Shown one piece after another: positions 14,448-36,979 of a stretch of DNA of 64,000 bases (within the stretch, counting starts at the first letter, position 1; each line of letters begins with the position of its first letter). A program made the position numbers and the translations under genes. This DNA comes from Polaromonas sp. AET17H-212 (GTDB lineage: Bacteria > Pseudomonadota > Gammaproteobacteria > Burkholderiales > Burkholderiaceae_C), in NCBI RefSeq assembly GCF_002379085.1, contig NZ_NBZW01000003.1, positions 1 to 64,000 on the forward strand. The letters are read 5' to 3'. The notes below the pieces were generated by a model that was not told where the DNA came from, searched no databases, and saw nothing but the letters and a program-made list of their open reading frames with translations.

Positions 14448-15764
14448 ATGAACAATGACAGCCTGCTCAAACGCATTGAATCCAAACGCGACGAGGTGAT
14501 TGCGCTCACCCAGGACCTGGTTCGCATTCCCACCATCAACCCGCCAGGGAACGCCTACGAAGCCTGCGCCCGACTGCTTGGCGAGCGGCTGCAAAAACGC
14601 GGCTTCGCCGTCGAATACATCCGGGCCGAGGGAGCCCCGGGCGACCGCAACTCCCATCCGCGCATCAATGTGGTGGCGCGCTACGAAGGTGCGCCCGGTG
14701 GTGAGTGTGTGCACTTCAACAGCCACATCGATGTGGTGGAAGCCGGTTCCGGCTGGACCACCGATCCCTTTGGCGGCGAGATCCGGGACGGCAAGGTCTA
14801 CGGCCGCGGCACTTGCGACATGAAGGGCGGACTGGCGTCCAGCGTGATTGCCTGCGAGGCGATTCTTGAAGAAGGCTTGCCGTTTGCCGGCGCGCTGGAA
14901 ATTTCAGGCACCGTCGATGAAGAGTCGGGCGGCTTCGCCGGCGTGGGTTATCTCGCCGAGCGCGGTTATTTCACGAAACCGCGCGTGCACCATGTGATCA
15001 TCCCCGAGCCGCTCGGGGTGGACCGCATCTGCCTCGGGCACCGCGGTGTCTGGTGGGGCGAGGTCGAGACCCTGGGCCGCATTGCGCATGGCTCCATGCC
15101 CTTCCTGGGCGACAGCGCCATCAACCACATGAGCGCCTTCATCCATCTGCTGGAGACGCAGCTGCAGCCGCGGCTGTCCGGGCGCCATACCGCGGAACCG
15201 GTGGAGCCGCCTGGTGCCCGGGTGAGCACGCTCAACATCAACAGCCTGCACGGTGGCCAGGTGGAGCAGCTGTTTGCCATGGACGCGCGCGGCCGCCCCA
15301 CCGGCGATCTGCCGGCGCCGGTGGTGGCGCACTCATGCCGCGCCGTGCTGGACCGCCGCTTCATCGCTGAAGAAAACCTGGAGGCCGTGAAGGCCGAGAT
15401 TGTGGCCATGCTCGAGGAGCTCAAGCGCAGCCGCCCCGGCTTTGACTACGGCATCCGGGACATCATGAGTTTTGTGCCGACGGCCACCCCCAAGGACGCG
15501 CCGGTGGTGCTGGCCACCGCGCGCGCCATCGCCCGGGTGCTGGGCCGCGAGGCCAGCTACATCTCCAGTCCCGGCACTTACGACCAGAAACACATCGTGC
15601 GCACGGGCAAGCTCGATGCGTGTATCGCCTACGGTCCAGGCATTCTCGATCTGGCGCATCAGCCCGACGAATATGTGGGCATTCAGGAGCTGGTGGACAG
15701 CGCAAAAATCATGGCACTGGCCGCTTTAAGCCTGACAAGTGGTCGCCATGCAACATCAAAGTAA
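14448..15764 (+). CDS. M20-family deacylase/peptidase (ArgE/DapE-like)
   Basis: A 438-residue zinc-dependent M20 hydrolase. Motifs in order: LVRIPTINPPG, FNSHIDVV (metal His and Asp about 88-92), GRGTCDMKGG, GTVDEESGGFAG (catalytic Glu pair), and a late HQPDEYV. The family includes ArgE and DapE, but the second argE-like gene at 46696 fits that role better, so this one may act on another N-acyl amino acid or dipeptide. Substrate unknown. It stands alone, followed by the quorum-sensing synthase promoter. Confidence 0.83.
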   Translation: MNNDSLLKRIESKRDEVIALTQDLVRIPTINPPGNAYEACARLLGERLQKRGFAVEYIRAEGAPGDRNSHPRINVVARYEGAPGGECVHFNSHIDVVEAGSGWTTDPFGGEIRDGKVYGRGTCDMKGGLASSVIACEAILEEGLPFAGALEISGTVDEESGGFAGVGYLAERGYFTKPRVHHVIIPEPLGVDRICLGHRGVWWGEVETLGRIAHGSMPFLGDSAINHMSAFIHLLETQLQPRLSGRHTAEPVEPPGARVSTLNINSLHGGQVEQLFAMDARGRPTGDLPAPVVAHSCRAVLDRRFIAEENLEAVKAEIVAMLEELKRSRPGFDYGIRDIMSFVPTATPKDAPVVLATARAIARVLGREASYISSPGTYDQKHIVRTGKLDACIAYGPGILDLAHQPDEYVGIQELVDSAKIMALAALSLTSGRHATSK

Positions 15765-15824
15765 TACCAAGGTAGTGATTTAGGGCAATTACTACACCGG
15801 AATCCGACTTTCGGGAGCTGACCC

Positions 15825-15840
15825 CTGTCAATGTTGACAG
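15825..15840. promoter_or_regulatory. Lux-box-like inverted repeat CTGTCAA-N2-TTGACAG upstream of the autoinducer synthase
   Basis: Perfect 7-bp arms around TG, extending to 10-bp arms with flanking CCC/GGG (15822-15843). It fits the CT-N12-AG pattern of LuxR-type operators. It lies 65 bases upstream of the synthase ATG. The identical arms recur at 19591-19606 beside the LuxR-type gene. Confidence 0.75.
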
Positions 15841-15905
15841 GGGGGGCAACCCTGAATTTGTTAAATTCATCTTCAATGGTGGTACTTTTTCACAAGGTAA
15901 CCACC

Positions 15906-17165
15906 ATGCACGCTCAACTTCTCGAAAAATCCCCCGCACAACTGGTAACAAAAGCAGTTGTCAACCCGGGCCTCTCTCCGCATCTGCAGCAGCGCATTGC
16001 GCGCGAATTCACGCCCCGCTGGCAACAGCAATGGGGTGGCAAGTTTGTCCTTCACGGCCGAACGGCCGGCCCCGATGCCGTTCGGCTGGACGGCAACGAT
16101 TACCTCAGCGTGACCGGCCATCCCGACATCGTCAGCGCCCAGGTGGCAGCCCTGCGCAACGACCGGGAGTTCGTGATCCAGTCCGGCGTGTTTGTGCATG
16201 GCGAGCATCCCGCCCGGACACTGGAAAAAAACCTGGCCCAGTGGGTCGGCAAGGAAGACGGGTTTGTCTGCCAGTCCGGCTACGCGGCCAATGTGGGTTT
16301 GCTGCAGGCCATTGCCGATCCGCAAACCCCGGTCTACCTCGACACGCTGGCGCACACGTCGCTGTGGGAGGGCGCGCATGCGGCGCGCGCACCGGCGCAT
16401 CCGTTTCGCCACAACGACCCGGCCCACCTGGACCGGGTGTTGTCACGGCACGGTCCGGGTGTGGTGGTGGTGGACTCGGTGTACAGCACCACCGGCGCCC
16501 TGTGTCCCCTGCGCGAGATGGTGGAAGTGGCCGAGCGCCACGGCTGCATGATTCTGGTGGACGAATCACATTCGCTCGGCACGCATGGACCCGGCGGCGC
16601 CGGGCTGTGCGCCGAACTCGGTCTGACGGACCGGGTGCATTTCATCACGGCCAGCCTGGCCAAGGCCTTTGCCGGGCGCGGTGGTTTTTTCACGGCGCCT
16701 GCAGAGCTGCGTTACTACATCCTCAGTTCCAGCTACCCCAATATCTTCAGCTCCTGCCTGCTATCCCACGAGATCGCCGGCCTGGGCGCCACACTCGCCG
16801 TGATCGGCAAACGCGACGAACAACGCCAGCGCCTGCGGGCCCATACGCTGAGGCTGCGCGGCAGCCTGTCGGACATGGGTTACCCGATCCATCAGGGCAC
16901 GGAGCAGATCATTTCCCTGGAGGCCGGCACCGAACCTGACACCATGGTGCTGCGCGACCACCTGGAGGAACGCGGTGTTTTTGGTGCAGTGTTTTGTGCC
17001 CCGGCGACCAGCCGCAACCGGGCCATGGTGCGCCTGACCCTGCACGCTGGGCTGACCGATGCGGAGCTCAGCCACGTGGAGGCGGTCGCGTACGAGGTCG
17101 CGCCGCTGGTCAAGCCCTGGGACTGGCCGATTGCCCGCCGGGCGCGGACGGCTGAAACAAGTTAA
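15906..17165 (+). CDS. cqsA: Alpha-hydroxyketone autoinducer synthase (CqsA/LqsA family)
   Basis: A 419-residue PLP enzyme of the alpha-oxoamine synthase superfamily (BioF, KBL, ALAS, CqsA). The N-terminus has GNDYLSVTGHP, the middle LVDESHSLGTHGPGGAGL (Asp219, His222) and the PLP lysine is Lys253 in TASLAKAFAGRGG. The DESHSLGTHGP and SYPNIFSSCLL blocks are typical of CqsA/LqsA rather than of BioF or KBL. CqsA-type enzymes condense acyl-CoA with an amino acid substrate to make the precursor of alpha-hydroxyketone signals (CAI-1, LAI-1). The ATG at 15906 has AAGG 8-11 bases upstream; the earlier in-frame ATG at 15831 lies inside the operator. The adjacent regulators support a signalling role. 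Confidence 0.85.
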   Translation: MHAQLLEKSPAQLVTKAVVNPGLSPHLQQRIAREFTPRWQQQWGGKFVLHGRTAGPDAVRLDGNDYLSVTGHPDIVSAQVAALRNDREFVIQSGVFVHGEHPARTLEKNLAQWVGKEDGFVCQSGYAANVGLLQAIADPQTPVYLDTLAHTSLWEGAHAARAPAHPFRHNDPAHLDRVLSRHGPGVVVVDSVYSTTGALCPLREMVEVAERHGCMILVDESHSLGTHGPGGAGLCAELGLTDRVHFITASLAKAFAGRGGFFTAPAELRYYILSSSYPNIFSSCLLSHEIAGLGATLAVIGKRDEQRQRLRAHTLRLRGSLSDMGYPIHQGTEQIISLEAGTEPDTMVLRDHLEERGVFGAVFCAPATSRNRAMVRLTLHAGLTDAELSHVEAVAYEVAPLVKPWDWPIARRARTAETS

Positions 17166-17187
17166 GCCGCTGGAAGGTTCGGCAAGA

Positions 17188-18165
17188 CTAGTCCCGCACA
17201 GTGCGCCGGCCGTGTTTTTTGAGCCAGTGTTTGTAACCGGTCAACCCCGGCGGACTGGCGGCCAACTCGACCGGAAACAGGGCACCCAGCAAGGTGCCAT
17301 CGTGGCCAATGGAAAACGCCGGAACCAGGCGCGCGGGTCCGGGTTGCCCCAGGGCTTGCTGAAGCTCGAGGTCCACCAGGTGGCGGCCGGCCCGGATGTC
17401 GTCAGCGGCAGCCGTCTTCAGGCCCTGGGACTCTGCCAGCTCCGCCAGGTCGGCGAGGCCTGCGGCAGACTCCAGCTGCAGCCAGCTGGCGCGACCGTCC
17501 GCGCCCATGCCCAGGATGCCGAAGGGCTGGCCAATGACCACATGTTCGACCCAGTGGCTGCTGGCCAGACTGGTGAGCTGGCGCGCCACCGACGGCACCT
17601 GCAACAGGGCATGCTGGGGCTGGGTCAGCGCGGCCCGCCATATCTGGGAATGGCGGATTTGCGGCTGGGCCAGCATGCGCTGGATCACGGTGATCAGGTG
17701 CTGGGAGATGTCGACGGTCTGCTTGGCAATGAACTGGTCGATCAGCCCCCGGTTGAAGGCGCTCACCGCCACATGCTCGTCGGCCTGCCCGGTCAGCAGC
17801 ACCCGGCCCCCTGGCCAGTCCGTCAACTCGCCCAGTGCCTGCAGGCCGTCCATGCCGGGCATGGCGTAGTCGAACACGCAGACCCTGGCCAGTCCGAAAC
17901 GTTCGGTGTGGTTGGCCCAGTAGTTCAGGACCTGCGGAATCAGCGGGCTGCCTGCACGCCAGCGCTCGATCATCTCCTGCTGCGTCCATGCGTCGGCCTC
18001 CCACAGCGGCGGTTCCTGTTGCAGCTGGTTGATGCAGGTCTGCGGCCGCAGGAACAGCTTGACGTACCACTGGCGTGGCAGCACCATCGCCAGCATTTCG
18101 AGGTAGGCAGAGTCATCGTCAAGGAAAACGATGGCGCCCGGGCGATGAAACAAGGGAAAACTCAT
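17188..18165 (-). CDS. LqsR-like response regulator with extended receiver
   Basis: A 325-residue response regulator. The receiver has the acidic triad Asp16-Asp18 (FLDDDSAY), phospho-acceptor Asp99 in VFDYAMPGMDG, Thr125 (LLTGQAD) and Lys148 (FIAKQ). The spacing from acidic pocket to Asp99 is about 45 residues longer than in a standard receiver, an insertion I also recall in Legionella LqsR (phosphorylated at Asp108). The C-terminal half (170-325) has no recognised DNA-binding motif, so the output is unknown. The start is 20 bases after the kinase stop, so kinase and regulator form an operon. It converges on the synthase gene. Confidence 0.8.
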   Translation of the reverse strand: MSFPLFHRPGAIVFLDDDSAYLEMLAMVLPRQWYVKLFLRPQTCINQLQQEPPLWEADAWTQQEMIERWRAGSPLIPQVLNYWANHTERFGLARVCVFDYAMPGMDGLQALGELTDWPGGRVLLTGQADEHVAVSAFNRGLIDQFIAKQTVDISQHLITVIQRMLAQPQIRHSQIWRAALTQPQHALLQVPSVARQLTSLASSHWVEHVVIGQPFGILGMGADGRASWLQLESAAGLADLAELAESQGLKTAAADDIRAGRHLVDLELQQALGQPGPARLVPAFSIGHDGTLLGALFPVELAASPPGLTGYKHWLKKHGRRTVRD

Positions 18166-18185
18166 GGATGCGCGTATGGGTTGGG

Positions 18186-19553
18186 TTACCTGAGAACCGG
18201 AAGCTCGATGATGAAAATGGCGCCGCGCCCGGGCTCGGACTTCACCCGGATGGTGCCGCCGGCACTTTCCACGACCTGCTGGCAGAAAGCCAGCCCCAGT
18301 CCGTGACCGGTCCCCCGGTCGGTCGAGAAAAACGGCTCGAAGATGCGTGCCTGCAATTCCGGCGGAACCCCGGTGCCCTGGTCGGTGACGATGATGCGCC
18401 CATAACCATTGAGCACCCCGACCTCGATGCGCAGGTCACCGGGTTTGGCGGCCGAGCTGGTTGCCGCCAGCGCACGAAAGGCGTTTTTGAGCAGGTTGTT
18501 GATGACCTGCGCGAACAGCCGGTAGGACGATTCGAATGAAAAATCCTTGCGCAGCACCAGCACCACAGATTCGCGTTCGCGCGAATTGCGATACGGGTAG
18601 TCCTTGACCACGTTGCGCAGCAGCGCAGCGGCAGCCACGGATTCCCGGTGTGTCGGCAGGCGCAGCAGGCGTGCATTGGCGATCTGCGTGTCGATCTGCT
18701 GGTTCATGTTGCGCACCAGTGTATGCAGCCTGACCACCAGTTGGTCCAGCCGCTGGCCGCCGCCGGACTCCTTGATCTGCCGGCCTTCATTGCGCACGGC
18801 GTCGCCGATCAGCGACATCGTGGCCAGCGGCGTGCGCAATTCGTGCGCCATGATGCCCATGGTGGTCAGCGTGTGCTGCAGGTGCTCACGCCGCAGGTTG
18901 GCCGACGACAGCCCCAGCAGCAGGGCGCTGGCCCAGCTGAAGCCGATCACGACGGCGTTGATGGAAAACTGCTCCTGGCTCATGGGGGTCACCGCCGGAC
19001 CAAACACCTGGAACAGCGCCCAGGCCAGCAGGGCCCCGCTGACCGTCCCCAGGGTGGCTGCACGCCAGTCGGTCACATGGTAATAAATCAGCACCATGGC
19101 GCAATAGCTGGCCAGCCAGACCGTGTTTCCGTTGTTGCAAAGATACATCCAGCTGAAAAAAACCGGCAGCTGGATCCAGAAAACCACAGAAAAAATTCGC
19201 GCCGAGAGCTTGCTGGAAGGATCGTTGGTGATGCTCTCCGAGATCAACAGCAAGCCCAGCGTGCCCATGACAGCGCGAAGCGCGGGGCTCTCGTAAGGCT
19301 GCGGCAGCCATTGTCCCCAGATCCACCCAAACAGGGGATGACCGACCAGCGTGAACAGCCCGAGCCAGCGCAGTCGCCAGCGCGACGGGTGCAAAATGAG
19401 AACCAGCTGCTCCTGAAGCAGTTCAGCCCTGATTCGCGCACACCACAGCCGCACCCACGCGCCGGGGCTGCTCCATAGCGTGTGAATCAATTGTTTGATC
19501 GTGGCGGGTACTCCGGAAGTCATGCGTAAATTTTCCAACATATCACAATACAT
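18186..19553 (-). CDS. Membrane histidine kinase, CqsS/LqsS-like autoinducer sensor
   Basis: A histidine kinase of about 455 residues from the ATG at 19553. Downstream in-frame ATGs at 19541 and 19523 are alternatives, and the open frame runs up to 19832. The N-terminal half has about six hydrophobic helices with almost no periplasmic domain, as in CqsS/LqsS, which bind alpha-hydroxyketones in the membrane. The kinase core follows: H-box IMAHELRTPLATM (His237 from this start), N-box NNLLKNAFRAL, G1 VTDQGTGVP, F-box FEPFFST and G2 GTGHGLGLAFC. There is no attached receiver, as in LqsS and unlike Vibrio CqsS. It probably phosphorylates the downstream regulator. Confidence 0.85.
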   Translation of the reverse strand: MYCDMLENLRMTSGVPATIKQLIHTLWSSPGAWVRLWCARIRAELLQEQLVLILHPSRWRLRWLGLFTLVGHPLFGWIWGQWLPQPYESPALRAVMGTLGLLLISESITNDPSSKLSARIFSVVFWIQLPVFFSWMYLCNNGNTVWLASYCAMVLIYYHVTDWRAATLGTVSGALLAWALFQVFGPAVTPMSQEQFSINAVVIGFSWASALLLGLSSANLRREHLQHTLTTMGIMAHELRTPLATMSLIGDAVRNEGRQIKESGGGQRLDQLVVRLHTLVRNMNQQIDTQIANARLLRLPTHRESVAAAALLRNVVKDYPYRNSRERESVVLVLRKDFSFESSYRLFAQVINNLLKNAFRALAATSSAAKPGDLRIEVGVLNGYGRIIVTDQGTGVPPELQARIFEPFFSTDRGTGHGLGLAFCQQVVESAGGTIRVKSEPGRGAIFIIELPVLR

Positions 19554-19574
19554 TGTCACAGTTCCGGGGCTTAA

Positions 19575-20249
19575 ATGACGATGCGGCCCCCTGTCAACTT
19601 TGACAGTATTGCGCTGGATAGCATGTTGAGTGACTGGATTTCTGCACTGCGCGAATTTTCCGTCGAGGCGGTGGTGGTGCTGAGCCCCGACCCGTTTGGC
19701 CAGCGGCAGGATCGGCTGGTGGCAGCGGTCCACCCGCCCCGCTTTTTCGACGCAGCGCTGGCGCTGGCAGAAAGCGAGGATTTCGGCGCGCCCTGGCGCG
19801 AGTCGGATGCATCCCTCGTGGCCTGGCAGCACATTGGCAAGGCAGAGTCCGGCAACACCAGCCGCTGGCGCCTGTTGTGGCTGGCCCTTGGTTTCCAGAG
19901 TGTGGTGCGGATCGAATTTCCGCTGCCGTCAGGACGGGCCTTCGAGTGTTTCATTTTCAGTCCACGCCAGTTCCACGACCGCGCCGAGGCTGCGGCGCTG
20001 GTCTGGTCGGCCCTCAATATCTGGCCCTTGTTCAAGCGCACCCTGGCCCAGGCCAGCAGTCCGCTGAGCCCGCGCGAGGGCGAATGCCTGGCGCTGGCCT
20101 TCGAAGGCTTGACGGCGCGCCAGACCGCTGAGCGCCTGCAGTGCGCCGAGCGGACCGTGAACTATCACCTGTCCAATGCCATGGCCAAACTCAAGGTGGA
20201 CAACAAGATGTCGGCGATTCAGCGCGCCTGCTGGCTCGGGGTGATCTGA
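19575..20249 (+). CDS. LuxR-type transcriptional regulator in the quorum-sensing cluster
   Basis: A 224-residue protein with a C-terminal LuxR/GerE helix-turn-helix (about 163-224): LSPREGECLALAFEGLTARQ, then AERTVNYHLSNAMAKL. The N-terminal domain (about 20-150) has the size of a small ligand-binding domain, but I do not see the usual acyl-homoserine-lactone residues with confidence. It is divergent from the kinase gene, 21 bases apart by the starts used here. A lux-box-like inverted repeat covers codons 6-11 if the ATG at 19575 is used; the ATG at 19623 (208 residues) would place the operator in the leader and may be the real start. The 3' end overlaps the convergent amidase by 31 bases. 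Confidence 0.82.
   Translation: MTMRPPVNFDSIALDSMLSDWISALREFSVEAVVVLSPDPFGQRQDRLVAAVHPPRFFDAALALAESEDFGAPWRESDASLVAWQHIGKAESGNTSRWRLLWLALGFQSVVRIEFPLPSGRAFECFIFSPRQFHDRAEAAALVWSALNIWPLFKRTLAQASSPLSPREGECLALAFEGLTARQTAERLQCAERTVNYHLSNAMAKLKVDNKMSAIQRACWLGVI
19591..19606. promoter_or_regulatory. Lux-box-like inverted repeat, second copy, at the LuxR gene
   Basis: CTGTCAA-CT-TTGACAG: the same arms as 15825-15840, also preceded by CCCC. It sits between the kinase and LuxR-type genes, or just inside the latter depending on its start, so it could control both divergent genes. Confidence 0.75.
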
Positions 20250-21691
20250 AGAATGTCCTGCGCCACACCTTCGTAGGCCTGCGCCAGTTGCAGCACGGCC
20301 CGGTCGCCGCGCGGTTTGCCGATCAGTTGCAGCCCCATCGGCAGGCCTTGCGGGCCGAAGCCTGCAGGCACGCTGATGCACGGCAGGCCGGCGAACGTGG
20401 CGTAAATCACCACTTCCATCCAGCGGTGATAGGTGTCCATGGGGTGGCCGTTGATCTGGCGGGGCCAGCGCTCGCCCGCATCAAACGGCCACACCTGCGC
20501 CGCAGGCAGGGCCAGAAAGTCATACCGCTCGAAGAGGGTGAGCATGTGCTGGTAAAACGCGGTGCGCTGCGCACTGGCCGCTGAAAAACCGCTGGCGCTC
20601 AGGCCCTGGGCCTGGTCGTATTCCCACAGCGCTTCCGGCTTGATCTTTGCCCGGTTGCTGTCCTGGACCAGAAATGGGGCAATGCGCGAGGCGACGAGGG
20701 CGCGCCGCCACACCAGCCAGGCTTGCCAGACCCGGTCGGCGGGTGTGCCCAGCGCCGTCGCCTCAACCGCACAGCCGAGCTGTTCGAAGCGCCGCAAGGA
20801 CTGCTCGCAGGTGTCGATGATGCCGTGCTCCATCGGCAGATAGGCCTCGAGGTCGCCGAGCCAGCCAATCCGGACAGTTCGGGTGTCCGGCGCAGGCAAG
20901 GTCAAAAACTGGGCGCCATCTTCCGCAATCGACAGCGGCGAACGCGCATCCCAGCCGGCCTGGATGCTGAGCAGCCTGGCGACGTCCTCGACGGTGCGAC
21001 CCATGGGCCCTTCGGTCCCGAGCTGGCTGAGGTAGACGTCCTGCACCGGCCACATCGGCACGCGGCCCTGGCTGGGCCGCAGGCCAAACACATTGTTCCA
21101 GGCGGCCGGGTTGCGCAGGCTGCCCATGAAGTCGCTGCCGTCGGCCACCGGCAGCATGCGTGTGGCCAGCGCCACCGCCGCACCGCCGCTGCTGCCACCC
21201 GCGCTTTTTGACGGGTCATACGCGTTGCGCGTGACGCCGAACACCTCATTGAAGGTGTGCGAACCCAGCCCGAACTCCGGTGTGTTGCTCTTGCCGATCA
21301 CGATGCAGCCCGCGGCCTTCATGCGCGACGCCATGAGGCCGTCTTCCCGGGCGACAAACTCCCGCATCAGGGGTGAACCGAGGGTGGTGGGCAGGCCTTG
21401 CACGGCGGCCAGGTCCTTGATGGCCTGCGGCATGCCGTGCATCCAGCCCATGCTTCCCGTGCGCGACTTGCCGGGCGCCAGCTGCGTATCGCGTTCGTCG
21501 GCCTGTGCCAGCAGATGGTCCGTCTCCTGCAGGCTGACCAGCGCGTTATGGAGCGGGTTGACCTGGGCGATGCGGTCCAGGTAGGCCTGCATCACTTCGC
21601 GGCAGGAAACCCAGCGTGCATGGATGGCGCGCGACAGTTCGGTGGCGGTCCAGGCAGTGATGGGGTTGCCGGGCTGTGAGCTGTTTTTCAT
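20219..21691 (-). CDS. Amidase (amidase signature family)
   Basis: A 490-residue amidase-signature enzyme. The catalytic triad region is visible: the lysine in MPQAIKDLAAV, the Gly/Ser-rich SAGGSSGGAAVALA, and DGSDFMGSLRNPA with the nucleophile serine. The N-terminus has TATELSRAIHARWVSCREVM, usual for the GatA-like group. Substrate unknown; the divergent peptide/amide transporter next to it suggests hydrolysis of an imported amide or peptide. Start is the ATG at 21691; an ATG six codons upstream (21709) is possible. It ends by overlapping the LuxR-type gene tail-to-tail. Confidence 0.85.
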   Translation of the reverse strand: MKNSSQPGNPITAWTATELSRAIHARWVSCREVMQAYLDRIAQVNPLHNALVSLQETDHLLAQADERDTQLAPGKSRTGSMGWMHGMPQAIKDLAAVQGLPTTLGSPLMREFVAREDGLMASRMKAAGCIVIGKSNTPEFGLGSHTFNEVFGVTRNAYDPSKSAGGSSGGAAVALATRMLPVADGSDFMGSLRNPAAWNNVFGLRPSQGRVPMWPVQDVYLSQLGTEGPMGRTVEDVARLLSIQAGWDARSPLSIAEDGAQFLTLPAPDTRTVRIGWLGDLEAYLPMEHGIIDTCEQSLRRFEQLGCAVEATALGTPADRVWQAWLVWRRALVASRIAPFLVQDSNRAKIKPEALWEYDQAQGLSASGFSAASAQRTAFYQHMLTLFERYDFLALPAAQVWPFDAGERWPRQINGHPMDTYHRWMEVVIYATFAGLPCISVPAGFGPQGLPMGLQLIGKPRGDRAVLQLAQAYEGVAQDILQITPSQQAR

Positions 21692-30907: not shown

Positions 30908-32440
30908 TTACGACGCGGCGTCACCCCAAGGCAGCATCAGGGTCACGATGGACAGCTTGGCGAACTCCGGCACAAACTCGTCGATGATGCGCTGTGGCTC
31001 CGGGCACAGCGTGCTGTCGGTGATCACGCCGAACTGCACGCCGCCCCCATAACTGAGGATGGATACGCCGAGCCCGACATCGCCCGACTGCGGCACCCAG
31101 AACATGCTTTGCTCCAGCGTCGCGCCGCAGAACCTGAGCTTTTCGCGCGGCCCCGGCACATTGGTCATCACCGCCGTGGTTTTTTTCGAGAACAGGTTGA
31201 GCATCGCGTCCTGCGCCGGCTTGATCAGCAGCCCGGCCACCGCCAGCAGGCTGAAGGCCAGCAGCGGCTGGTAGCTGCCCTTGAGCGCCGCCATGCGCCG
31301 CCGCACCTCGTAGACCCGTTCCACCGGGTTGTCGACGCCAATGGGCAGCACCAGCGGCACCAGGCCGAAGCGGTTGCCGAGCTTGTAGGCCTGCTCGAGG
31401 GGCCGCAGGTTCACCGGGACCATGGCGCGTATCTCCTGGCCCTTCACGTCGTCGCCGTGCGACTTGAGGTATTCGCCAATCGCGCCGGCCACGCAACTGA
31501 GCAACACATCGTTGATCGAGCAGTTCAGCGCCTTGCCGACGGCCTTAACTTCATCCAGCGGTATCGGCTGGCACCAGGCGACTTTTTTGCTGGTGCCCGG
31601 CTTGCCCTTGAGCCGGGTTTTCGAGTCGTCGGGCATCAGCGCCAGCGCGGCGCTGTCCTTGAGAACCTGCAGCATGACCTTGGCCATGTCGAGCGAGCCG
31701 GCCATGCCTTTGTGCGGGTCACTCAGCAGGTGCAACGAGCGCGCCGCGCCTTCGCCGGCCGCGCCCAGCGCCTTGACCGTCAAATCGGTGAAAGGTTTGA
31801 GCAGGGTCTCGGCAATCCAGTCCTCGGCGCCGCCGCTGCTTTCCTTTTTGTTCCGCTCGGGCGGTGCGGCGCCGCCGTCCACCAGCGACATCGTCACCGA
31901 AATCAGCGCAATGCCGTCGGCAATGCAGTGGTGGATGCGCACAATCATGGCGCTGCCCTTGACGCCGTCAGGGCCGGTGTAGTCCTCGATCAGGTGGATT
32001 TGCCAGAGCGGGCGCTTGCGGTCCAGCGGCTGCATGGCGAGTTCGGCCACGCGTTCCTGCAGCGCTTCCTGCTCCTTGCCCCGGGCCACCTTCGGCAGCT
32101 TGTCGGCAATCACGTGGTTCTGCAAGTCGAAATAACGGTCCTCGACCCAGGTGGCGCCGGCGGCGTCTTCCATCACGCGCTGGCGAAAGCGCGCGTACTT
32201 GAGCAGGCTGTTTTCAATGCGCTCACACACGGCGGCATGGCTGACACCGGGTTGCAGCGACCACACGCCCACAATCATCATCAGGTTCGACGGCGTGTCC
32301 ATGCGCAGCCAGGCGGTGTCGACCTTGCTCATGCGTTCGCCCGACAGGCCCAACGTGCCGGAGACGGCGCGTTTGACGTTTTTCTGAACGTTCTTTGCGA
32401 CTTTTTTGCCCGCTGCCTGGGCCGAAACGCGTGTGACCAT
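30908..32440 (-). CDS. Wax ester synthase/diacylglycerol acyltransferase (WS/DGAT)
   Basis: A 510-residue acyltransferase. The catalytic HHxxxDG motif is IHHCIADG in the N-terminal half, preceded by PLWQIHLIEDY; the C-terminal half has the NDVLLSCVAGAI and TNVPGPREKLRFCG blocks of the family. It joins fatty acyl-CoA to fatty alcohol or diacylglycerol at the inner membrane to make storage wax ester or triacylglycerol. The start at 32440 has GGAG upstream and gives a basic Lys/Ala-rich leader of about 35 residues, perhaps for membrane or lipid contact. Divergent from the acyl-CoA-binding protein gene. Confidence 0.9.
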   Translation of the reverse strand: MVTRVSAQAAGKKVAKNVQKNVKRAVSGTLGLSGERMSKVDTAWLRMDTPSNLMMIVGVWSLQPGVSHAAVCERIENSLLKYARFRQRVMEDAAGATWVEDRYFDLQNHVIADKLPKVARGKEQEALQERVAELAMQPLDRKRPLWQIHLIEDYTGPDGVKGSAMIVRIHHCIADGIALISVTMSLVDGGAAPPERNKKESSGGAEDWIAETLLKPFTDLTVKALGAAGEGAARSLHLLSDPHKGMAGSLDMAKVMLQVLKDSAALALMPDDSKTRLKGKPGTSKKVAWCQPIPLDEVKAVGKALNCSINDVLLSCVAGAIGEYLKSHGDDVKGQEIRAMVPVNLRPLEQAYKLGNRFGLVPLVLPIGVDNPVERVYEVRRRMAALKGSYQPLLAFSLLAVAGLLIKPAQDAMLNLFSKKTTAVMTNVPGPREKLRFCGATLEQSMFWVPQSGDVGLGVSILSYGGGVQFGVITDSTLCPEPQRIIDEFVPEFAKLSIVTLMLPWGDAAS

Positions 32441-32564
32441 GAAAACTCCGTGCACCGACTGCCCCGGATGGGGTGAATTCCCTATTCTGCAGGCAAGGCA
32501 GTGGCTAAGATACCGGGCAGTTACCCGAATTCATTGCCACTTCCAACCCCCACGGAGCATCTTC

Positions 32565-32819
32565 ATGTCAGATATCAAAGCCGCTTTCGACAAGGCCATG
32601 GCCGATTCCAAAAACCTCAGCGAGCGGCCCGACAACGCCACCCTGCTGAAGATCTATGCGCTCTACAAGCAGGGCAGCGTGGGCGACAACACCGACAAGA
32701 AGCCCGGCTTCGGTGACATGGTGGCACGCGCCAAGTGGGATGCCTGGAACAACCTCAAGGGCACGTCGCAGGAAGATGCGATGCAACAGTATGTGGATTT
32801 GATTGAGTCGTTGAGCTGA
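32565..32819 (+). CDS. Acyl-CoA-binding protein
   Basis: An 84-residue ACBP. It shows the four-helix pattern with LKIYALYKQGSVGDNTDKKP and the AKWDAWNNLKGTSQEDAMQQY block whose Lys, Trp and Tyr residues contact the acyl-CoA. It keeps a cytosolic long-chain acyl-CoA pool. It is divergent from the WS/DGAT gene by 124 bases, which fits delivery of acyl-CoA to that enzyme. ATG at 32565 has GGAG 9-12 bases upstream. Confidence 0.92.
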   Translation: MSDIKAAFDKAMADSKNLSERPDNATLLKIYALYKQGSVGDNTDKKPGFGDMVARAKWDAWNNLKGTSQEDAMQQYVDLIESLS

Positions 32820-32860
32820 ACCGCCGAGTTATCCAAAAAGGCCCGTCATGGACATGCTTC

Positions 32861-33706
32861 TCATTTAAAGAGCAGAGGAATCGTTCCAACCAGTGAAAGT
32901 ACTCCGAAGGCCAATTGCCCTGCTGCCTGCCCCTCTTTGAACACAAAAGATGCAATCAACATCAAGAGGGGAACCCTCAGACTAATTGCTAAATAGCCAT
33001 AGCTAACAGGAAGAATGTCGGAAAGCGCAAAACTGAAAAACAGCTCCGGGATGGCCCAGCATAAGGCGATGATCAACCAGGTCGAAACACCGACATGTAC
33101 ACGGTGACGCTTTAAAACTGCAGCGGATAGAAAATTCCCGAGGCCAGTATAGAGCAGGTATATGTACCAGCCAGAAGCCGGGATGCCGATTTTGTCGCAA
33201 CAAGCGAATCCGACCACCGCTGCAATCATGAACGAAAACCGCTTCTTGTCCCCAAATGACATTGCACCTAGGTGGCCGAAAATCATGAAACCTACTCCCG
33301 ACAAGAAAAGCACAGAAATGGCGAACATTCCTCTCACAGAAATTGCGCTACCGAACATGATCACATCGAGAACAGCAATTGCACCTAGTGCTACCGGGAA
33401 TACATATGTCGTTGCCGAGAGACTACGACCAATCAATTGCTGCTGAGCTACTAGTAAAGCCGTAAGAAGGGCTCCTTTGACGAGTCCTGCGCCGATCCCG
33501 GCAAGGTTGTGCAGCATACCCAAGTCCGCGACATTGGCACCCCAAGCAAAGGGCAAAAAAATCAGACATACAAGGACTGTTCCCGAGCCGACCCCCAATG
33601 CAGTGGCCGCAGGCGCCGTGCTGACTGCCACACGACGAAAAATCAGGGTTCTTACTGTCACCAGTACCAGAATTGCGAGAAAAACCGAGGTTTGGAGCGT
33701 ACTCAA
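32861..33706 (-). CDS. DMT/EamA-like membrane transporter
   Basis: A 281-residue membrane protein with about ten hydrophobic helices in the drug/metabolite transporter pattern, but without motifs that give a substrate. I choose a TTG start at 33706, where GGAG lies upstream and 4 bases separate it from the racemase-fragment stop; the open frame extends to an ATG at 33772 inside that gene. Codon use is noticeably more AT-rich than that of flanking genes, and it is the first part of a low-GC island (about 32.8-35.6 kb). Export of an amino acid is a guess based on the racemase remnant beside it. Confidence 0.65.
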   Translation of the reverse strand: MSTLQTSVFLAILVLVTVRTLIFRRVAVSTAPAATALGVGSGTVLVCLIFLPFAWGANVADLGMLHNLAGIGAGLVKGALLTALLVAQQQLIGRSLSATTYVFPVALGAIAVLDVIMFGSAISVRGMFAISVLFLSGVGFMIFGHLGAMSFGDKKRFSFMIAAVVGFACCDKIGIPASGWYIYLLYTGLGNFLSAAVLKRHRVHVGVSTWLIIALCWAIPELFFSFALSDILPVSYGYLAISLRVPLLMLIASFVFKEGQAAGQLAFGVLSLVGTIPLLFK

Positions 33707-33710
33707 AGCC

Positions 33711-33971
33711 TCACATCTCCATCGCAGTTGACTGTTGCGAATGGCGCAGTGCAGCTGAGATATGGACATCAATCGAATCGATCAGTTGGATACTGTCGTA
33801 ACTGGTTTCGCCGTTAAGGATTAGCGGGATCTCAGTGCATCCCAAGATGATGGCTTGAACATCTTGTGCCGCCAAGTCATCCATAGCACTGAAAATTACC
33901 TCTTTTGCATTTGAGGAGAAATAGTGACGGCAAACTACGTTGCACAAGTCCATCAGTAGCGGAAGATTCAA
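33711..33971 (-). pseudogene. Truncated aspartate/glutamate racemase, C-terminal fragment
   Basis: An 86-residue frame that matches only the C-terminal third of the Asp/Glu racemase family: AQDVQAIILGCTEIPLIL contains the second catalytic cysteine region (GCTE), followed by IDSIDVHISAALR. The N-terminal half with the first catalytic cysteine is missing, and an in-frame stop lies 8 codons upstream of a TTG. A complete enzyme is about 230 residues. It could still be translated from the TTG at 33971 (AGGGAG upstream), but it cannot be a functional racemase. It lies just upstream of the transporter on the same strand. Confidence 0.65.
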
Positions 33972-34146
33972 AGGTAGCTCCCTTCGTGATTTTTAGCGGA
34001 GAGTGCTGATGAGATGTGAATTTTTTGATTCAATTCCAACCGTCTTTCGAGCAATTCAGCACGTTTTGAAGAATGAACTCTATCTGTTCAATCCGTCGAA
34101 GTAGTGCGAAAATCGGCCATCGCAGCTGCAATTCGGGTCAATATTT

Positions 34147-34956
34147 ATGAGACTAAAACGCGCAAAAGCGGTAGGGCTCGACGTGACCGCACCGGCCGCC
34201 ATCGCGCCCTCGTCGATGGCACCAATAAAGCGGAGACAACGTAAGCTTGTTGCTGGCGAGCGATTTCATTCACATCAGCATTCGTGGGATCAGCTCGCTG
34301 TGAGCTTAAATGGCAGTGTGCTTATTCTTATGGGGGGTAGCGGGGGCCAAGCGCAGTTTGTCTCGCCTTCACGCAGCGCTTGGATTCCAGCTGGCCAGAC
34401 GCATGCCCTGGAAGCTTTCACCGATTGCACCTATGTATCTCTGTACCTCGACCCGCTTCAGCCGCTATTTTCTTCGCGCGAAGTCCAAACTGTGGAGCTT
34501 AGGCGCTTTGCCGTCGAGTTGATTGGGCAGCTTGACAGCCATACGATGGAGAACACGTCGGCGCGCTATCGGGCGATAGTCTTTCTACTTTACGAAGAAC
34601 TTAGGTCAGGCTTGTCTCAAGGGGATCGGTTTTTTTTACCATTCGATAAGCGATTGAACGCAGTGTGCAACCATGTTTTTGATCACCTCGGAGAACGGGA
34701 ATCCAATGCGGCTATTGCGGCCAGGTACGGTCTGAGCGCAAGAACACTCTCGCGGTTATCTAGAAATCAATTAGGTACAAGCTTTGCGCACTGGCGCTCT
34801 TTAGTTACGCTTTCCTTTGCTCGAACGCTGCTACAAGATGGGCTGCCGATTGCACTAGTTGCCTATACCTGCGGATTTTCAAGTGTGAGTGCATTTCACC
34901 TCCGATTCAAATCGATGTTTAAAGCGTCTCCAGGTCGATTTCGTCAGGACTCTTGA
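34147..34956 (+). CDS. AraC-family transcriptional regulator
   Basis: A 269-residue regulator. The N-terminal cupin-like domain (about 28-110) has FHSHQHSWDQLAVSLNGSV and WIPAGQTHALEAF; the C-terminal double helix-turn-helix (about 170-265) has AIAARYGLSARTLSRLSRNQ and ALVAYTCGFSSVSAFHLRFK. This cupin plus AraC layout often controls a transporter or detoxification gene nearby; the divergent transporter/racemase pair is the likely original target. Low GC like its neighbours in the island. Confidence 0.85.
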   Translation: MRLKRAKAVGLDVTAPAAIAPSSMAPIKRRQRKLVAGERFHSHQHSWDQLAVSLNGSVLILMGGSGGQAQFVSPSRSAWIPAGQTHALEAFTDCTYVSLYLDPLQPLFSSREVQTVELRRFAVELIGQLDSHTMENTSARYRAIVFLLYEELRSGLSQGDRFFLPFDKRLNAVCNHVFDHLGERESNAAIAARYGLSARTLSRLSRNQLGTSFAHWRSLVTLSFARTLLQDGLPIALVAYTCGFSSVSAFHLRFKSMFKASPGRFRQDS

Positions 34957-35101
34957 GCATGCTATGAATATGTGGAGCTACCTCAAAGTGCGCCGCTGTT
35001 TCCGAGATTTTGTTGCCTCGATTCCTAGCCAGATGGCCAGCTTCTCGGCGTGGGGATCGAGCTTGCTTGAGCTGACCCGTCTTTCGTACCTGGGCTCAGT
35101 C

Positions 35102-35587
35102 TCATCTGATCGCAGATGGGCGCCGAGCGGTGGTTTGGCTAAGCGTGGCGACGACAGGAGGCAGAACGCCATCTTCGAGCGACTTTAGAGTTTCGCGAAG
35201 ACTTGGGAAGCTGTTGTATGTGGTGATGCTGCCGTCTGGCATTCGCATCATGCGCCCAGCCTCGCATTCGATGACGGCGGTTGGTCCTACAGCTACGAGT
35301 AGAAACGGCCCTGTCGCTTTGACCTCTTTAAGCCATTCTGACTCGGACTCTGCGAAGTCGTCACCGATTAGGCGCTGAGAACCCGCATTGACGCTTTTGG
35401 ATAGGGCGATTCGATAGTTGGCACCTGCGACGTGAGTCCGTCGCGCATCTGCAAAGCTTTCCGGAAGCGTAATTCCTCCGATCTCATAGACAGTCACGCC
35501 CATGAAGCTCGCAGCAAGACTGCCTTTGTCGATGAGATCTCGAAATCCCATTGAATCGAGTGCGTAGGTGGAGAAAGTTGCCGTCAT
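35102..35587 (-). CDS. Orphan ORF in low-GC island, function unknown
   Basis: A possible 161-residue protein that I do not recognise. It has mixed alpha/beta-like composition, no signal peptide and no clear motif; GPFLLVAVGPTAVIECEAGRM looks like a beta-sheet core. No good ribosome binding site precedes the ATG at 35587. It could be a fragment of a larger protein or a spurious frame in imported DNA. Confidence 0.4.
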   Translation of the reverse strand: MTATFSTYALDSMGFRDLIDKGSLAASFMGVTVYEIGGITLPESFADARRTHVAGANYRIALSKSVNAGSQRLIGDDFAESESEWLKEVKATGPFLLVAVGPTAVIECEAGRMMRMPDGSITTYNSFPSLRETLKSLEDGVLPPVVATLSQTTARRPSAIR

Positions 35588-35814
35588 GAGTGCAGATCGC
35601 CTGCGACACTTAACTTAATGGATGCCGCGCAGCCTGCGGTATCCCTTGGCCGCTGCGACTGAGCCCGGTCCGGATTGACCGCGAGGGCGCTAAGCGCTAA
35701 GGTTGCAAGAGTTCTTATGCATGGACGCTCCTGTCATGGAATTCAACCGCACAGTAAACACGGCGATTCTATGGAGGTTCCAGTAGATCATGGCGAAAAC
35801 TTGCTACTGTTCGC

Positions 35815-35847
35815 CCTGAGCTTGTCGAAGGGCTTCGACAGGCTCAG
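35815..35847. repeat. CCTGAGCTTGTCGAAGGG repeat, copy 3, as an inverted pair
   Basis: The 18-base word (35815-35832) is followed directly by CTTCGACAGGCTCAG, its reverse complement with one change, making a hairpin of about 15 bp. Confidence 0.65.
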
Positions 35848-35945
35848 CCTGAACGGGGTGGTGTCAAGAATGATAAAAAATCTACAGACTTGACCGGATT
35901 AATAGTAAAAATCCGTCCTCAGCCCTTGTCCCACGTTCGCAATCA

Positions 35946-35962
35946 GCTATCAATGTAGTAGC
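35946..35962. repeat. 17-base palindromic repeat, copy 6
   Basis: GCTAT-CAATGTA-GTAGC, 27 bases past the stop of the Bug-type gene; one arm base differs from the consensus. Confidence 0.6.
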
Positions 35963-35989
35963 AGCCAGGGCTCGCTGAACCCGCTGCCA

Positions 35990-36979
35990 TCAATCCGCCT
36001 TGATACCCGACACCTTGATGATGCGGCTCCACATGCCGCGCTCGGTGGTCTCGAGCTTGGCCAGTTCCGCGCTGTTTAGAAACACGGCCTTGGCACCCTG
36101 TTCCTCGGCACGTTTGCGGAAGGTGTCGGACTCCACCACCTGCTTGATCGCGGCTGAAATCCGTGCCGACGTTTCGGTGGGGATGCCATTCGGGCCATAC
36201 ACGGCGAACCAGGAAGACGCCACCAGCGGCACACCCTGTTCGGTCGCGGTCGGCACCTCCGGCAACGCCGCCAGCCGCGTGCGGCCGGTCACCATCAGCG
36301 CCCTGAGCTTGCCCGAGCGGATATGCGGCAGCAGCGGTGGCGGCGTCGTGATGGTGAAGTCGACAGAGCCGCCCAGCAGGTCGGTCAGGGCCTGGCCGGT
36401 GCCGCGGTAGGGGATGTGCACCAGGTAGGTTTTGGTCAGGTCCTTCAGCAATTCCGTGGTCACGTGCTGCAGTGACCCATTGCCGCTGGAGGCGTAGTTC
36501 ACCTTGCCCGGGTTGGCCCTGGCGTACTGGAGGAACTCGGCAAAGGTGTTTGCGGGGAAATTGCTGCGCACCACCATCAGTTGCGGCGCGTCGATCAGGT
36601 GGCCCAGGGGCTTGAGGTCCTTGCCGGGGTCAAAGCCGGCGGCGGGCTGCAGCAGCGGCGTGATGCATTGGTAGCCCGAGTATTGCACCAGCAGGGTGGT
36701 GCCATCGGCGGGCGCACGGGCGACCAGCTGACCGCCGATGTTGCCGTTGGCGCCACCGCGGTTGTCCACCACCACCGAGGTGCCCAGGAGCTTGCCCAGC
36801 GGCTCGGCCAGCAGGCGCGCCGCAATGTCGGTGGTGCCGCCCGCGGGCGTGGGCACCACCAGCGTGATGGGCTTGCCGGCGGGCTGCGCGAAGGCGCTGC
36901 CCATGAAGGTGGGGGCGGCGACTACGGTGGCCGCGGCGGCGGCGCCGGTGATCAGTGTTCTTCTGGAAATCGGGGTCAC
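35990..36979 (-). CDS. Tripartite tricarboxylate transporter substrate-binding protein (Bug/TctC family)
   Basis: A 329-residue periplasmic binding protein. The leader has twin arginines (SRRTLITGAAAAATVV) and ends near AFAQ. The mature start PITLVVPTPAGGTTDIAARLLAEPL and DNRGGANGNIGGQ are hallmark Bug-family sequences that bind carboxylates. The GTG at 36979 is chosen: AGGAGAC lies 7-13 bases upstream, and the earlier ATG gives a leader without a coherent signal. No TctA/TctB genes are nearby, as is common for these expanded families. It is the last gene of the CoA-transferase/lyase operon, suggesting uptake of that pathway's acid. Confidence 0.9.
   Translation of the reverse strand: MTPISRRTLITGAAAAATVVAAPTFMGSAFAQPAGKPITLVVPTPAGGTTDIAARLLAEPLGKLLGTSVVVDNRGGANGNIGGQLVARAPADGTTLLVQYSGYQCITPLLQPAAGFDPGKDLKPLGHLIDAPQLMVVRSNFPANTFAEFLQYARANPGKVNYASSGNGSLQHVTTELLKDLTKTYLVHIPYRGTGQALTDLLGGSVDFTITTPPPLLPHIRSGKLRALMVTGRTRLAALPEVPTATEQGVPLVASSWFAVYGPNGIPTETSARISAAIKQVVESDTFRKRAEEQGAKAVFLNSAELAKLETTERGMWSRIIKVSGIKAD

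What the first reader, a model, noticed from the sequence alone, without database searches (positions are those of the whole stretch)
15825..20249. Alpha-hydroxyketone quorum-sensing cluster that also carries a LuxR-type regulator
A CqsA/LqsA-type synthase, a receiver protein resembling LqsR, a membrane kinase resembling LqsS/CqsS and a LuxR-type DNA-binding protein are contiguous. Cqs/Lqs systems are known from Vibrio and Legionella, and related clusters have been noted in some Burkholderiales (from memory). The added LuxR-type gene, divergent from the kinase, suggests a circuit in which the DNA-binding output is a LuxR-family protein rather than a sigma-54 regulator or an unknown LqsR output. 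This is the best candidate in the window for an undescribed system.
Basis: partly seen in the sequence, partly recalled or inferred. Interest (0 to 1): 0.85.

Follow-up and report, generated by a model that had tools for sequence, protein, structure and literature searches.

The report
Quorum-sensing cluster with its own regulator
A soil and water bacterium (Polaromonas) and its relatives carry a known type of chemical cell-counting system, to which one bacterial family has added a dedicated DNA-binding regulator whose probable binding sites lie at the signal-making gene, at its own gene and at genes for secreted products.

Summary
Four contiguous genes encode an alpha-hydroxyketone (AHK) autoinducer synthase, an LqsR-type response regulator, a membrane histidine kinase and, divergently, a LuxR/GerE-type DNA-binding protein. 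The genome is nearest to Polaromonas. The LuxR-type gene was detected in 73 of 76 named AHK loci of Comamonadaceae (one true absence) and beside 0 of 22 more distant AHK synthases. The synthase tree fits one gain and at least two losses.

New: a palindrome, CCCTGTCA-N4-TGACAGGG, lies in the synthase promoter (at least 13/16 in 69 of 73 regions tested). A second copy at the start of the LuxR-type gene is constrained at DNA level. In the genus, copies recur before an ABC transporter of type I secretion kind, a GH5 cellulase-like protein and other genes. A locus that lost only the regulator also lost the palindrome. A conserved, covarying hairpin covers the synthase start codon.

Best reading: an Lqs/Jqs-type AHK system whose output and feedback run through a dedicated GerE-family regulator. 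DNA binding, the sign of control, the link from the kinase and the AHK itself are untested. Some results do not fit neatly and are told. New variant of a known kind.

The parts
15823..15842 (.). Palindrome CCCTGTCA-N4-TGACAGGG in the synthase promoter, probable operator
   Evidence: Exact match; at least 13/16 in 69 of 73 related upstream regions, 2 of 730 shuffles reach 13
15876..15907 (+). RNA hairpin that includes the ribosome-binding region and part of the synthase start codon
   Evidence: Mean fold z -2.99 in 49 loci, controls near 0; arms of one locus pair better than swapped arms
15906..17165 (+). AHK autoinducer synthase (CqsA/LqsA/JqsA family)
17188..18165 (-). LqsR-type response regulator; receiver residues D16, D17, D99, T125, K148 invariant in 58 sequences
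18186..19541 (-). Membrane histidine kinase (LqsS/CqsS position), start codon uncertain
19575..20249 (+). LuxR/GerE-type regulator with an N-terminal domain that has no Pfam match
19589..19608 (.). Second palindrome (2 mismatches) inside the start of the LuxR-type gene, probable autoregulatory site
   Evidence: at least 12/16 in 68 of 69 loci; codon choice constrained

Best explanation
This is an Lqs/Jqs-type alpha-hydroxyketone quorum-sensing module with a dedicated GerE-family transcription factor. Inferred circuit: the synthase makes an AHK; the membrane kinase senses it and sets the phosphorylation of the LqsR-type regulator, which has no recognised DNA-binding domain; by a link not yet known, signalling changes the activity or level of the LuxR-type protein. 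That protein binds, as a dimer, CCCTGTCA-N4-TGACAGGG palindromes at the synthase promoter (feedback on signal production), at the start of its own gene (autoregulation) and upstream of a small set of other genes, in several species for secretion and secreted enzymes. A hairpin over the synthase start codon adds a translational brake. Shown: genes, synteny, co-occurrence, palindromes, DNA-level constraint, recurring target genes, hairpin covariation. Inferred: DNA binding by this protein, activation at the synthase promoter, the coupling step, the identity of the signal.
For: Family membership of synthase, LqsR and kinase. LuxR-type gene in 73 of 76 named AHK loci, LqsR and kinase in 75 of 76 each; in 24 of 27 family-sample hits outside the genus; beside 0 of 22 loci outside the family; full-length relatives in only 2 of 369 genomes of a class-wide sample, both with the cluster. 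One clade in the synthase tree holds the loci with the gene (27 rows, 100/99). Palindrome at the synthase promoter in 69 of 73 regions and at the LuxR-type gene in 68 of 69; codons P=CCT 100% (background 16%), F=TTT 100% (42%), S=AGT 74% (12%) there. L125 lost only the regulator and has no copy. In the genus 30 of 44 genomes with the gene have a copy at one mismatch or less, 3 of 43 without it. Copies before the same gene families: 26 of 34 examined distal sites fall in five recurrent groups. Distance from palindrome centre to the TCAAT motif 38-40 bp in 61 of 70 loci.
Against: No binding or expression data. 14 of 44 genus genomes with the gene have no copy at one mismatch or less; G002 and G017 have a copy before the ABC transporter but no detected LuxR-type gene, G011 a copy inside a coding region. 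L109 and L117, and in the family sample L194, L202 and L209, have the LuxR-type gene but no good copy at the synthase (L194 is the same locus as L109 and L202 the same as L117). L147/L223 keeps a perfect copy though the regulator is broken and LqsR and kinase are gone; L219 keeps a 14/16 copy with neither synthase nor regulator. L215 lost LqsR and kinase as well as the regulator, so its missing palindrome is not specific to the regulator. The window's own genome has only one other exact site, and no homolog of the ABC transporter at E <= 1e-100.
Confidence: 0.72

Rival explanations
1. The LuxR-type protein binds the palindrome, but as a repressor: it limits the synthase and its own expression, and AHK signalling or a ligand relieves it.
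For: The copy inside the LuxR-type gene lies downstream of its start codon, a place that suits repression. The right half of the synthase copy reads TTGACA in the window, like a -35 element, so a bound protein could block it (sequence reading).
Against: The rigid 38-40 bp from palindrome centre to TCAAT would put the centre near -40, where LuxR-type activators sit (recalled), if transcription starts there; the start site is unknown. No clear -10 element was found to settle it.
Confidence: 0.3
2. The LuxR-type protein is a direct intracellular receptor of the AHK, working beside the kinase pathway.
For: Predicted full-length fold nearest to AHL receptors; gene tied to the synthase; LuxR-type proteins that bind non-AHL signals made by a neighbouring non-LuxI enzyme exist (PpyS/PluR, PMC3824090, passages).
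Against: No PF03472 match in 53 members; GAF domains fit the N-terminal domain as well; ligand-contact residues could not be aligned.
Confidence: 0.2
3. The palindrome is bound by another protein, such as LqsR or an unlinked regulator, and the LuxR-type gene only travels with the cluster.
For: Palindromes persist in a few genomes without an intact LuxR-type gene (L147, L219, G002, G017).
Against: LqsR is detected in 14 of 22 outgroup loci, none with the palindrome by the synthase; L125 keeps LqsR and kinase but not the palindrome; the palindrome lies inside the LuxR-type gene itself.
Confidence: 0.1
4. Ordinary Lqs/Jqs cluster with an accidental neighbour.
For: Lqs and Jqs clusters elsewhere lack the gene (PMC5080296, passages).
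Against: Conserved order across at least five genera, co-occurrence 43/1/1/42, mean column identity of the LuxR-type protein higher than that of LqsR (76% against 63%).
Confidence: 0.03

Closest known systems
Jqs system of Janthinobacterium/Duganella (jqsA-jqsS-jqsR; PMC3566124, PMC5080296, passages and one section)
   Same: CqsA-type synthase beside a sensor kinase and an LqsR homologue in Burkholderiales; a palindrome, the JAI-1 motif, lies upstream of signal-regulated genes and of jqsA itself.
   Different: Reported as three genes; the motif is TTGA-N6/7-TCAA, of which the N6 form is absent from the window (N7 not tested). Here a LuxR-type gene and a different palindrome (CTGTCA-N4-TGACAG) are added.
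Lqs system of Legionella pneumophila (LqsA, LqsS, LqsR; PMC3376566, PMC11237717, passages)
   Same: Synthase family, membrane kinase, LqsR by sequence profile and predicted fold.
   Different: No LuxR-type gene in the cluster; the transcription factor LvbR acts downstream but is not described as part of the cluster in what I read.
Cqs system of Vibrio (CqsA/CqsS)
   Same: Synthase matches the solved CAI-1 synthase over residues 22-395.
   Different: Vibrio cqs genes lack an LqsR homologue (PMC3566124) and signal through LuxU/LuxO and small RNAs (PMC3376566).
LuxR solos and AHL-receptor LuxR proteins (QscR, SdiA, TraR; PMC10134790, PMC3824090, passages)
   Same: GerE helix-turn-helix, similar predicted full-length fold, palindrome of the form CTG-N10-CAG (resemblance to a lux box recalled).
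   Different: No PF03472 match in 53 of 53 members, so a survey defined by PF03472 such as PMC10134790 would not list it; it sits beside a CqsA-type synthase, not a LuxI.

Membership tests
AHK quorum sensing (Cqs/Lqs/Jqs) | Synthase of the CqsA/LqsA equivalog family | tested here: met
   NF005526 576.9 bits over cut-off 428; CAI-1 synthase structures E 5.5e-104; tree
AHK quorum sensing (Cqs/Lqs/Jqs) | Membrane histidine kinase adjacent to the synthase cluster | tested here: met
   Kinase domains, hydrophobic segments; present in 75 of 76 named AHK loci
AHK quorum sensing (Cqs/Lqs/Jqs) | LqsR-type response regulator (Lqs and Jqs only) | tested here: met
   Profile match to 6sy9 E 1.6e-31; Foldseek top hit LqsR, TM 0.75/0.79
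AHK quorum sensing (Cqs/Lqs/Jqs) | Production and sensing of an alpha-hydroxyketone | not testable with these tools
   Needs chemistry and mutants
AHK quorum sensing (Cqs/Lqs/Jqs) | CAI-1-binding residues in the kinase membrane domain | not tested
   No named CqsS/LqsS sequence was aligned
Jqs system with JAI-1 motif | TTGA-N6/7-TCAA motif upstream of the synthase | tested here: not met
   N6 form: none in the window; N7 form not tested
GerE/LuxR-type DNA-binding proteins | GerE helix-turn-helix | tested here: met
   E 1.6e-16 in the window protein; 53 of 53 members
AHL-receptor LuxR family / LuxR solos | Autoinducer-binding domain PF03472 | tested here: not met
   No match up to E 1 in 53 of 53 members
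AHL-receptor LuxR family / LuxR solos | Ligand-domain fold and AHL-contact residues | tested here: inconclusive
   QscR Z 13.5 over 203 residues at rmsd 7.4; GAF domains score alike for the N-terminal domain; alignment to E. coli SdiA has no confidence there
AHL-receptor LuxR family / LuxR solos | Lux-box-like operator in target promoters | tested here: inconclusive
   Palindrome found at synthase, own gene and other genes, but binding by this protein is inferred

The most novel reading that the evidence does not exclude
The LuxR-type protein is itself an intracellular receptor for the AHK made next door, so that the module reads one signal twice: from outside through the LqsS/LqsR phosphorelay and from inside through a LuxR-fold receptor that controls the synthase through its own palindrome. 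That would merge two classic Gram-negative quorum-sensing designs in one cluster.
Probability: 0.2. Interest if true: 0.85.

Novelty: new variant of a known kind. Interest (0 to 1): 0.62.

Why it matters
In Lqs and Jqs systems the response regulator has no known DNA-binding domain, and the protein that acts at signal-controlled promoters is unclear. This lineage offers a linked candidate regulator, its probable operator, a short list of likely targets and a natural loss as a control, in environmental bacteria. It makes the output step of AHK quorum sensing directly testable, and suggests how a GerE-type regulator was recruited into a non-AHL system.

Tried and rejected
Rejected: BioF/KBL identity of the synthase; accidental neighbour; the palindrome as a transcription terminator (no T-run after it, other copies upstream of unrelated genes); the JAI-1 motif in its N6 form.

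Led nowhere: Pfam for the N-terminal domain of the LuxR-type protein; Rfam for 15600-20400; alignment to SdiA for ligand-contact residues; a TATTGTC motif before the LuxR-type gene, perhaps a -10 element, not resolved; a -10 element at the synthase promoter, not found. Sites at 3 mismatches in the own genome were not used: 27 sites at up to 3 mismatches against 13 for the reversed control. Fisher tests are not corrected for phylogeny. Gene calls around distal sites come from a simple ORF script, so distances to starts are rough. The hairpin test used mononucleotide shuffles and 49 of 76 loci, those with a TCAAT anchor at a set distance and not near-identical. Alignment rows were thinned: 53 of 69 full-length LuxR-type proteins for A1 (54 after removal of near-copies, the window's row standing for the nearest), 58 for A2. 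Tree: 55 rows chosen from the loci, L168 not among them. Folds absent from the list are not taken as excluded.
Full report
What is there. The window lies in a 4.65-Mb genome whose nearest named relatives are Polaromonas. At 15906-20249 there are four genes: synthase (+), LqsR-type regulator (-), membrane histidine kinase (-) and a LuxR/GerE-type regulator (+). The synthase passes the AHK-synthase equivalog cut-off and fails BioF's, matches the solved CAI-1 synthase at E 5.5e-104, and in a 55-row tree stands apart from the genome's own two BioF/KBL-like paralogs. The receiver protein matches Legionella LqsR by profile over both domains and by predicted fold; D16, D17, D99, T125 and K148 are invariant in 58 sequences (that these are the receiver's working residues is recalled).

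Is the fourth gene part of it? Yes. Of 78 named loci found with the synthase, 76 are AHK-type (62% identity or more); L167 and L168 are about 30%. The LuxR-type gene was detected in 73 of the 76, LqsR and kinase in 75 each. Of the 73, L145 and L146 run into contig ends, L147 is broken and L151 gives two pieces. Of the three without a hit, L101 ends inside the kinase, L163 ends just after a palindrome like that at the gene's start, and L125 (Polaromonas OV174) truly lacks it: the kinase is followed by the gene that follows the LuxR-type gene in L120. In the family sample 31 of 299 genomes have the synthase; of the 27 outside the genus, all fetched, 24 have the LuxR-type gene; L215, L216 and L217 do not. 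Some of these genomes are also among the named loci. Outside the family the order and class samples gave 23 hits; 22 form the outgroup set L169-L190, and none encodes a full-length relative of the LuxR-type protein (L176 has an HTH-only match); the 23rd, L228 (34% identity), has none either. Several of these contigs are short. In 87 genus genomes regulator and synthase co-occur 43/1/1/42. In a class-wide sample of 369 genomes full-length relatives occur only in G000 and G223, both with the cluster; G1103 has an HTH-only hit. In the synthase tree the loci with the gene form one branch (27 rows, 100/99) that also holds L125 and L215, so one gain with at least two losses is the simplest history.

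A probable operator. Upstream of the synthase lies CCCTGTCAATGTTGACAGGG (15823-15842). Of 73 upstream regions tested, 48 match all 16 positions and 69 at least 13; shuffles reach 13 in 2 of 730. The four below 13 are L109, L117, L125 and L167 (the last not AHK-type). The centre is mostly 68-76 bp before the start codon, and 38-40 bp before a TCAAT motif in 61 of 70 loci. A second copy lies just inside the LuxR-type gene (19589-19608): at least 12/16 in 68 of 69 loci, against 8 of 690 shuffles. Its codons are constrained beyond the protein: CCT for P in 100% (background 16%), TTT for F in 100% (42%), AGT for S in 74% (12%), three of the four most biased of 105 conserved columns. None of the 22 outgroup loci has the palindrome by its synthase; L187 has one 13/16 match elsewhere.

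How well does it track the regulator? L125 lost only the LuxR-type gene and has no copy. L215 has none either, but it also lacks LqsR and the kinase. Against strict tracking: L147/L223 keeps a perfect copy with a broken regulator and no LqsR or kinase; L219 keeps a 14/16 copy without synthase or regulator; L109/L194, L117/L202 and L209 have the gene but no good copy at the synthase. In the genus, at one mismatch or less, 30 of 44 genomes with the gene have a copy and 3 of 43 without it (G002, G011, G017).

Likely regulon. The window's genome has two exact copies: the synthase promoter, and one 91 bp before a small unknown gene of about 120 aa, which is followed by a receiver-domain gene. In the genus 33 of 87 genomes have copies at one mismatch or less, against 1 of 87 for the reversed pattern. 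I examined 34 distal sites: 33 fetched and the own one. By similarity 26 of 34 fall in five groups: an ABC transporter of type I secretion kind in ten genomes, about 119-136 bp downstream of the site (L279, L281, L283, L285, L288, L299, L301, L303, L304, L305); the 120-aa gene in six (L247, L278, L282, L284, L286, L287); a GH5 cellulase-like protein with a Tat-like leader (read by eye) in five (L289, L294, L296, L297, L307); a TctC-type protein in three (L292, L295, L308); and a FeeM-like N-acyl amino acid synthase with a hybrid kinase in two (L290, L298). Not assigned: L280, L291, L293, L300, L302, L306, L309 and L310, the last inside a coding region. The own genome has no homolog of the ABC transporter at E <= 1e-100.

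A hairpin at the synthase start. In 49 loci (of 76; those with a TCAAT anchor at a set distance, near-copies removed) the start region folds with mean z -2.99, 36 of 49 below -2; starts of LqsR, kinase and LuxR-type genes give 1 of 73, 1 of 73 and 2 of 69. Within a locus 292 of 378 cells pair; swapping arms between the 42 aligned loci gives a mean of 231 and at most 259 in 1000 trials; a shift by one position gives 246. By eye it is also present in L125, so it looks like a separate layer of control. No Rfam family matches.

The regulator. The predicted structure has mean pLDDT 89. The best full-length matches are AHL receptors: 2q0o at E 3.3e-9, QscR at Z 13.5 over 203 residues with rmsd 7.4, which suggests like domains in another arrangement. 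For the N-terminal domain GAF domains score as well (3hcy Z 10.7, rmsd 3.7 over 141; CepR2 Z 10.3, rmsd 3.9 over 147). No member of 53 matches PF03472. A ligand domain is plausible; its ligand is unknown.

How it most likely works is given in Best explanation. The step from kinase and LqsR to the LuxR-type protein is the weakest link: protein contact, control of its expression, or a ligand. The sign at the synthase promoter is open: its place fits activation if transcription starts near TCAAT, while the copy inside its own gene fits repression.

What is known. PMC3376566 (passages) lists lqsA/lqsS homologues in Polaromonas and other Burkholderiales, some with lqsR. PMC3566124 (passages and section 22) describes jqsA-jqsS-jqsR and names synthases of Polaromonas naphthalenivorans and Ramlibacter tataouinensis in a tree. 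PMC5080296 (passages) describes the JAI-1 palindrome TTGA-N6/7-TCAA at jqsA, vioA and chiA; no binder is named in what I read. PMC11237717 (passages) describes LqsR's putative nucleotide-binding output domain and LvbR. PMC7683790, PMC4427320 and PMC3824090 (passages) describe lux boxes and solos; PMC10134790 (passages) defines solos by PF03472. Ten searches of the paper library listed no paper whose title or abstract start tells of a LuxR-type gene in an AHK cluster; most listed papers were not opened, figures were not seen, and most subscription journals are not held.

Verdict. Observation confirmed; interpretation supported and extended. The genes are of a known kind; the conserved regulatory branch appears undescribed. 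Interest 0.62: not a new kind of system, but a linked regulator, operator and target list for an open question.

Noticed in passing
L290 3203-5703; L298 3085-5581: In two Polaromonas genomes the palindrome lies before a FeeM-like N-acyl amino acid synthase and a hybrid kinase that is 26% identical to the window's kinase over 420 residues, membrane part included: perhaps a second signalling system under the same regulator.
   Followed up: partly
L224 7920-11427; L225 7998-10359: Second, synthase-less partial clusters in two Polaromonas genomes: LqsR plus a LuxR-type protein (53% identical) in G024, LqsR plus kinase in G065. They may be receivers only.
   Followed up: partly
L147 1-2000 (same locus as L223): A decayed cluster: synthase and perfect palindrome kept, LuxR-type gene broken, LqsR and kinase gone.
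   Followed up: partly
G000 C35:87159-87178 (L247 7160), outside the window: The only other exact palindrome of this genome, 91 bp before an unknown gene of about 120 aa followed by a receiver-domain gene; the same arrangement of site and small gene occurs in five other genomes.
   Followed up: partly
window 32001-36000: Segment with G+C 0.53-0.54 where most of the window has 0.61-0.69, with a membrane protein (32861-33772) and what looks by eye like an AraC-type regulator (34147-34956): perhaps a recent insertion.
   Followed up: no
L097: A locus with 86% identical synthase and the full four-gene cluster is titled Brevundimonas sp.; more likely a mislabelled Polaromonas contig or bin.
   Followed up: no
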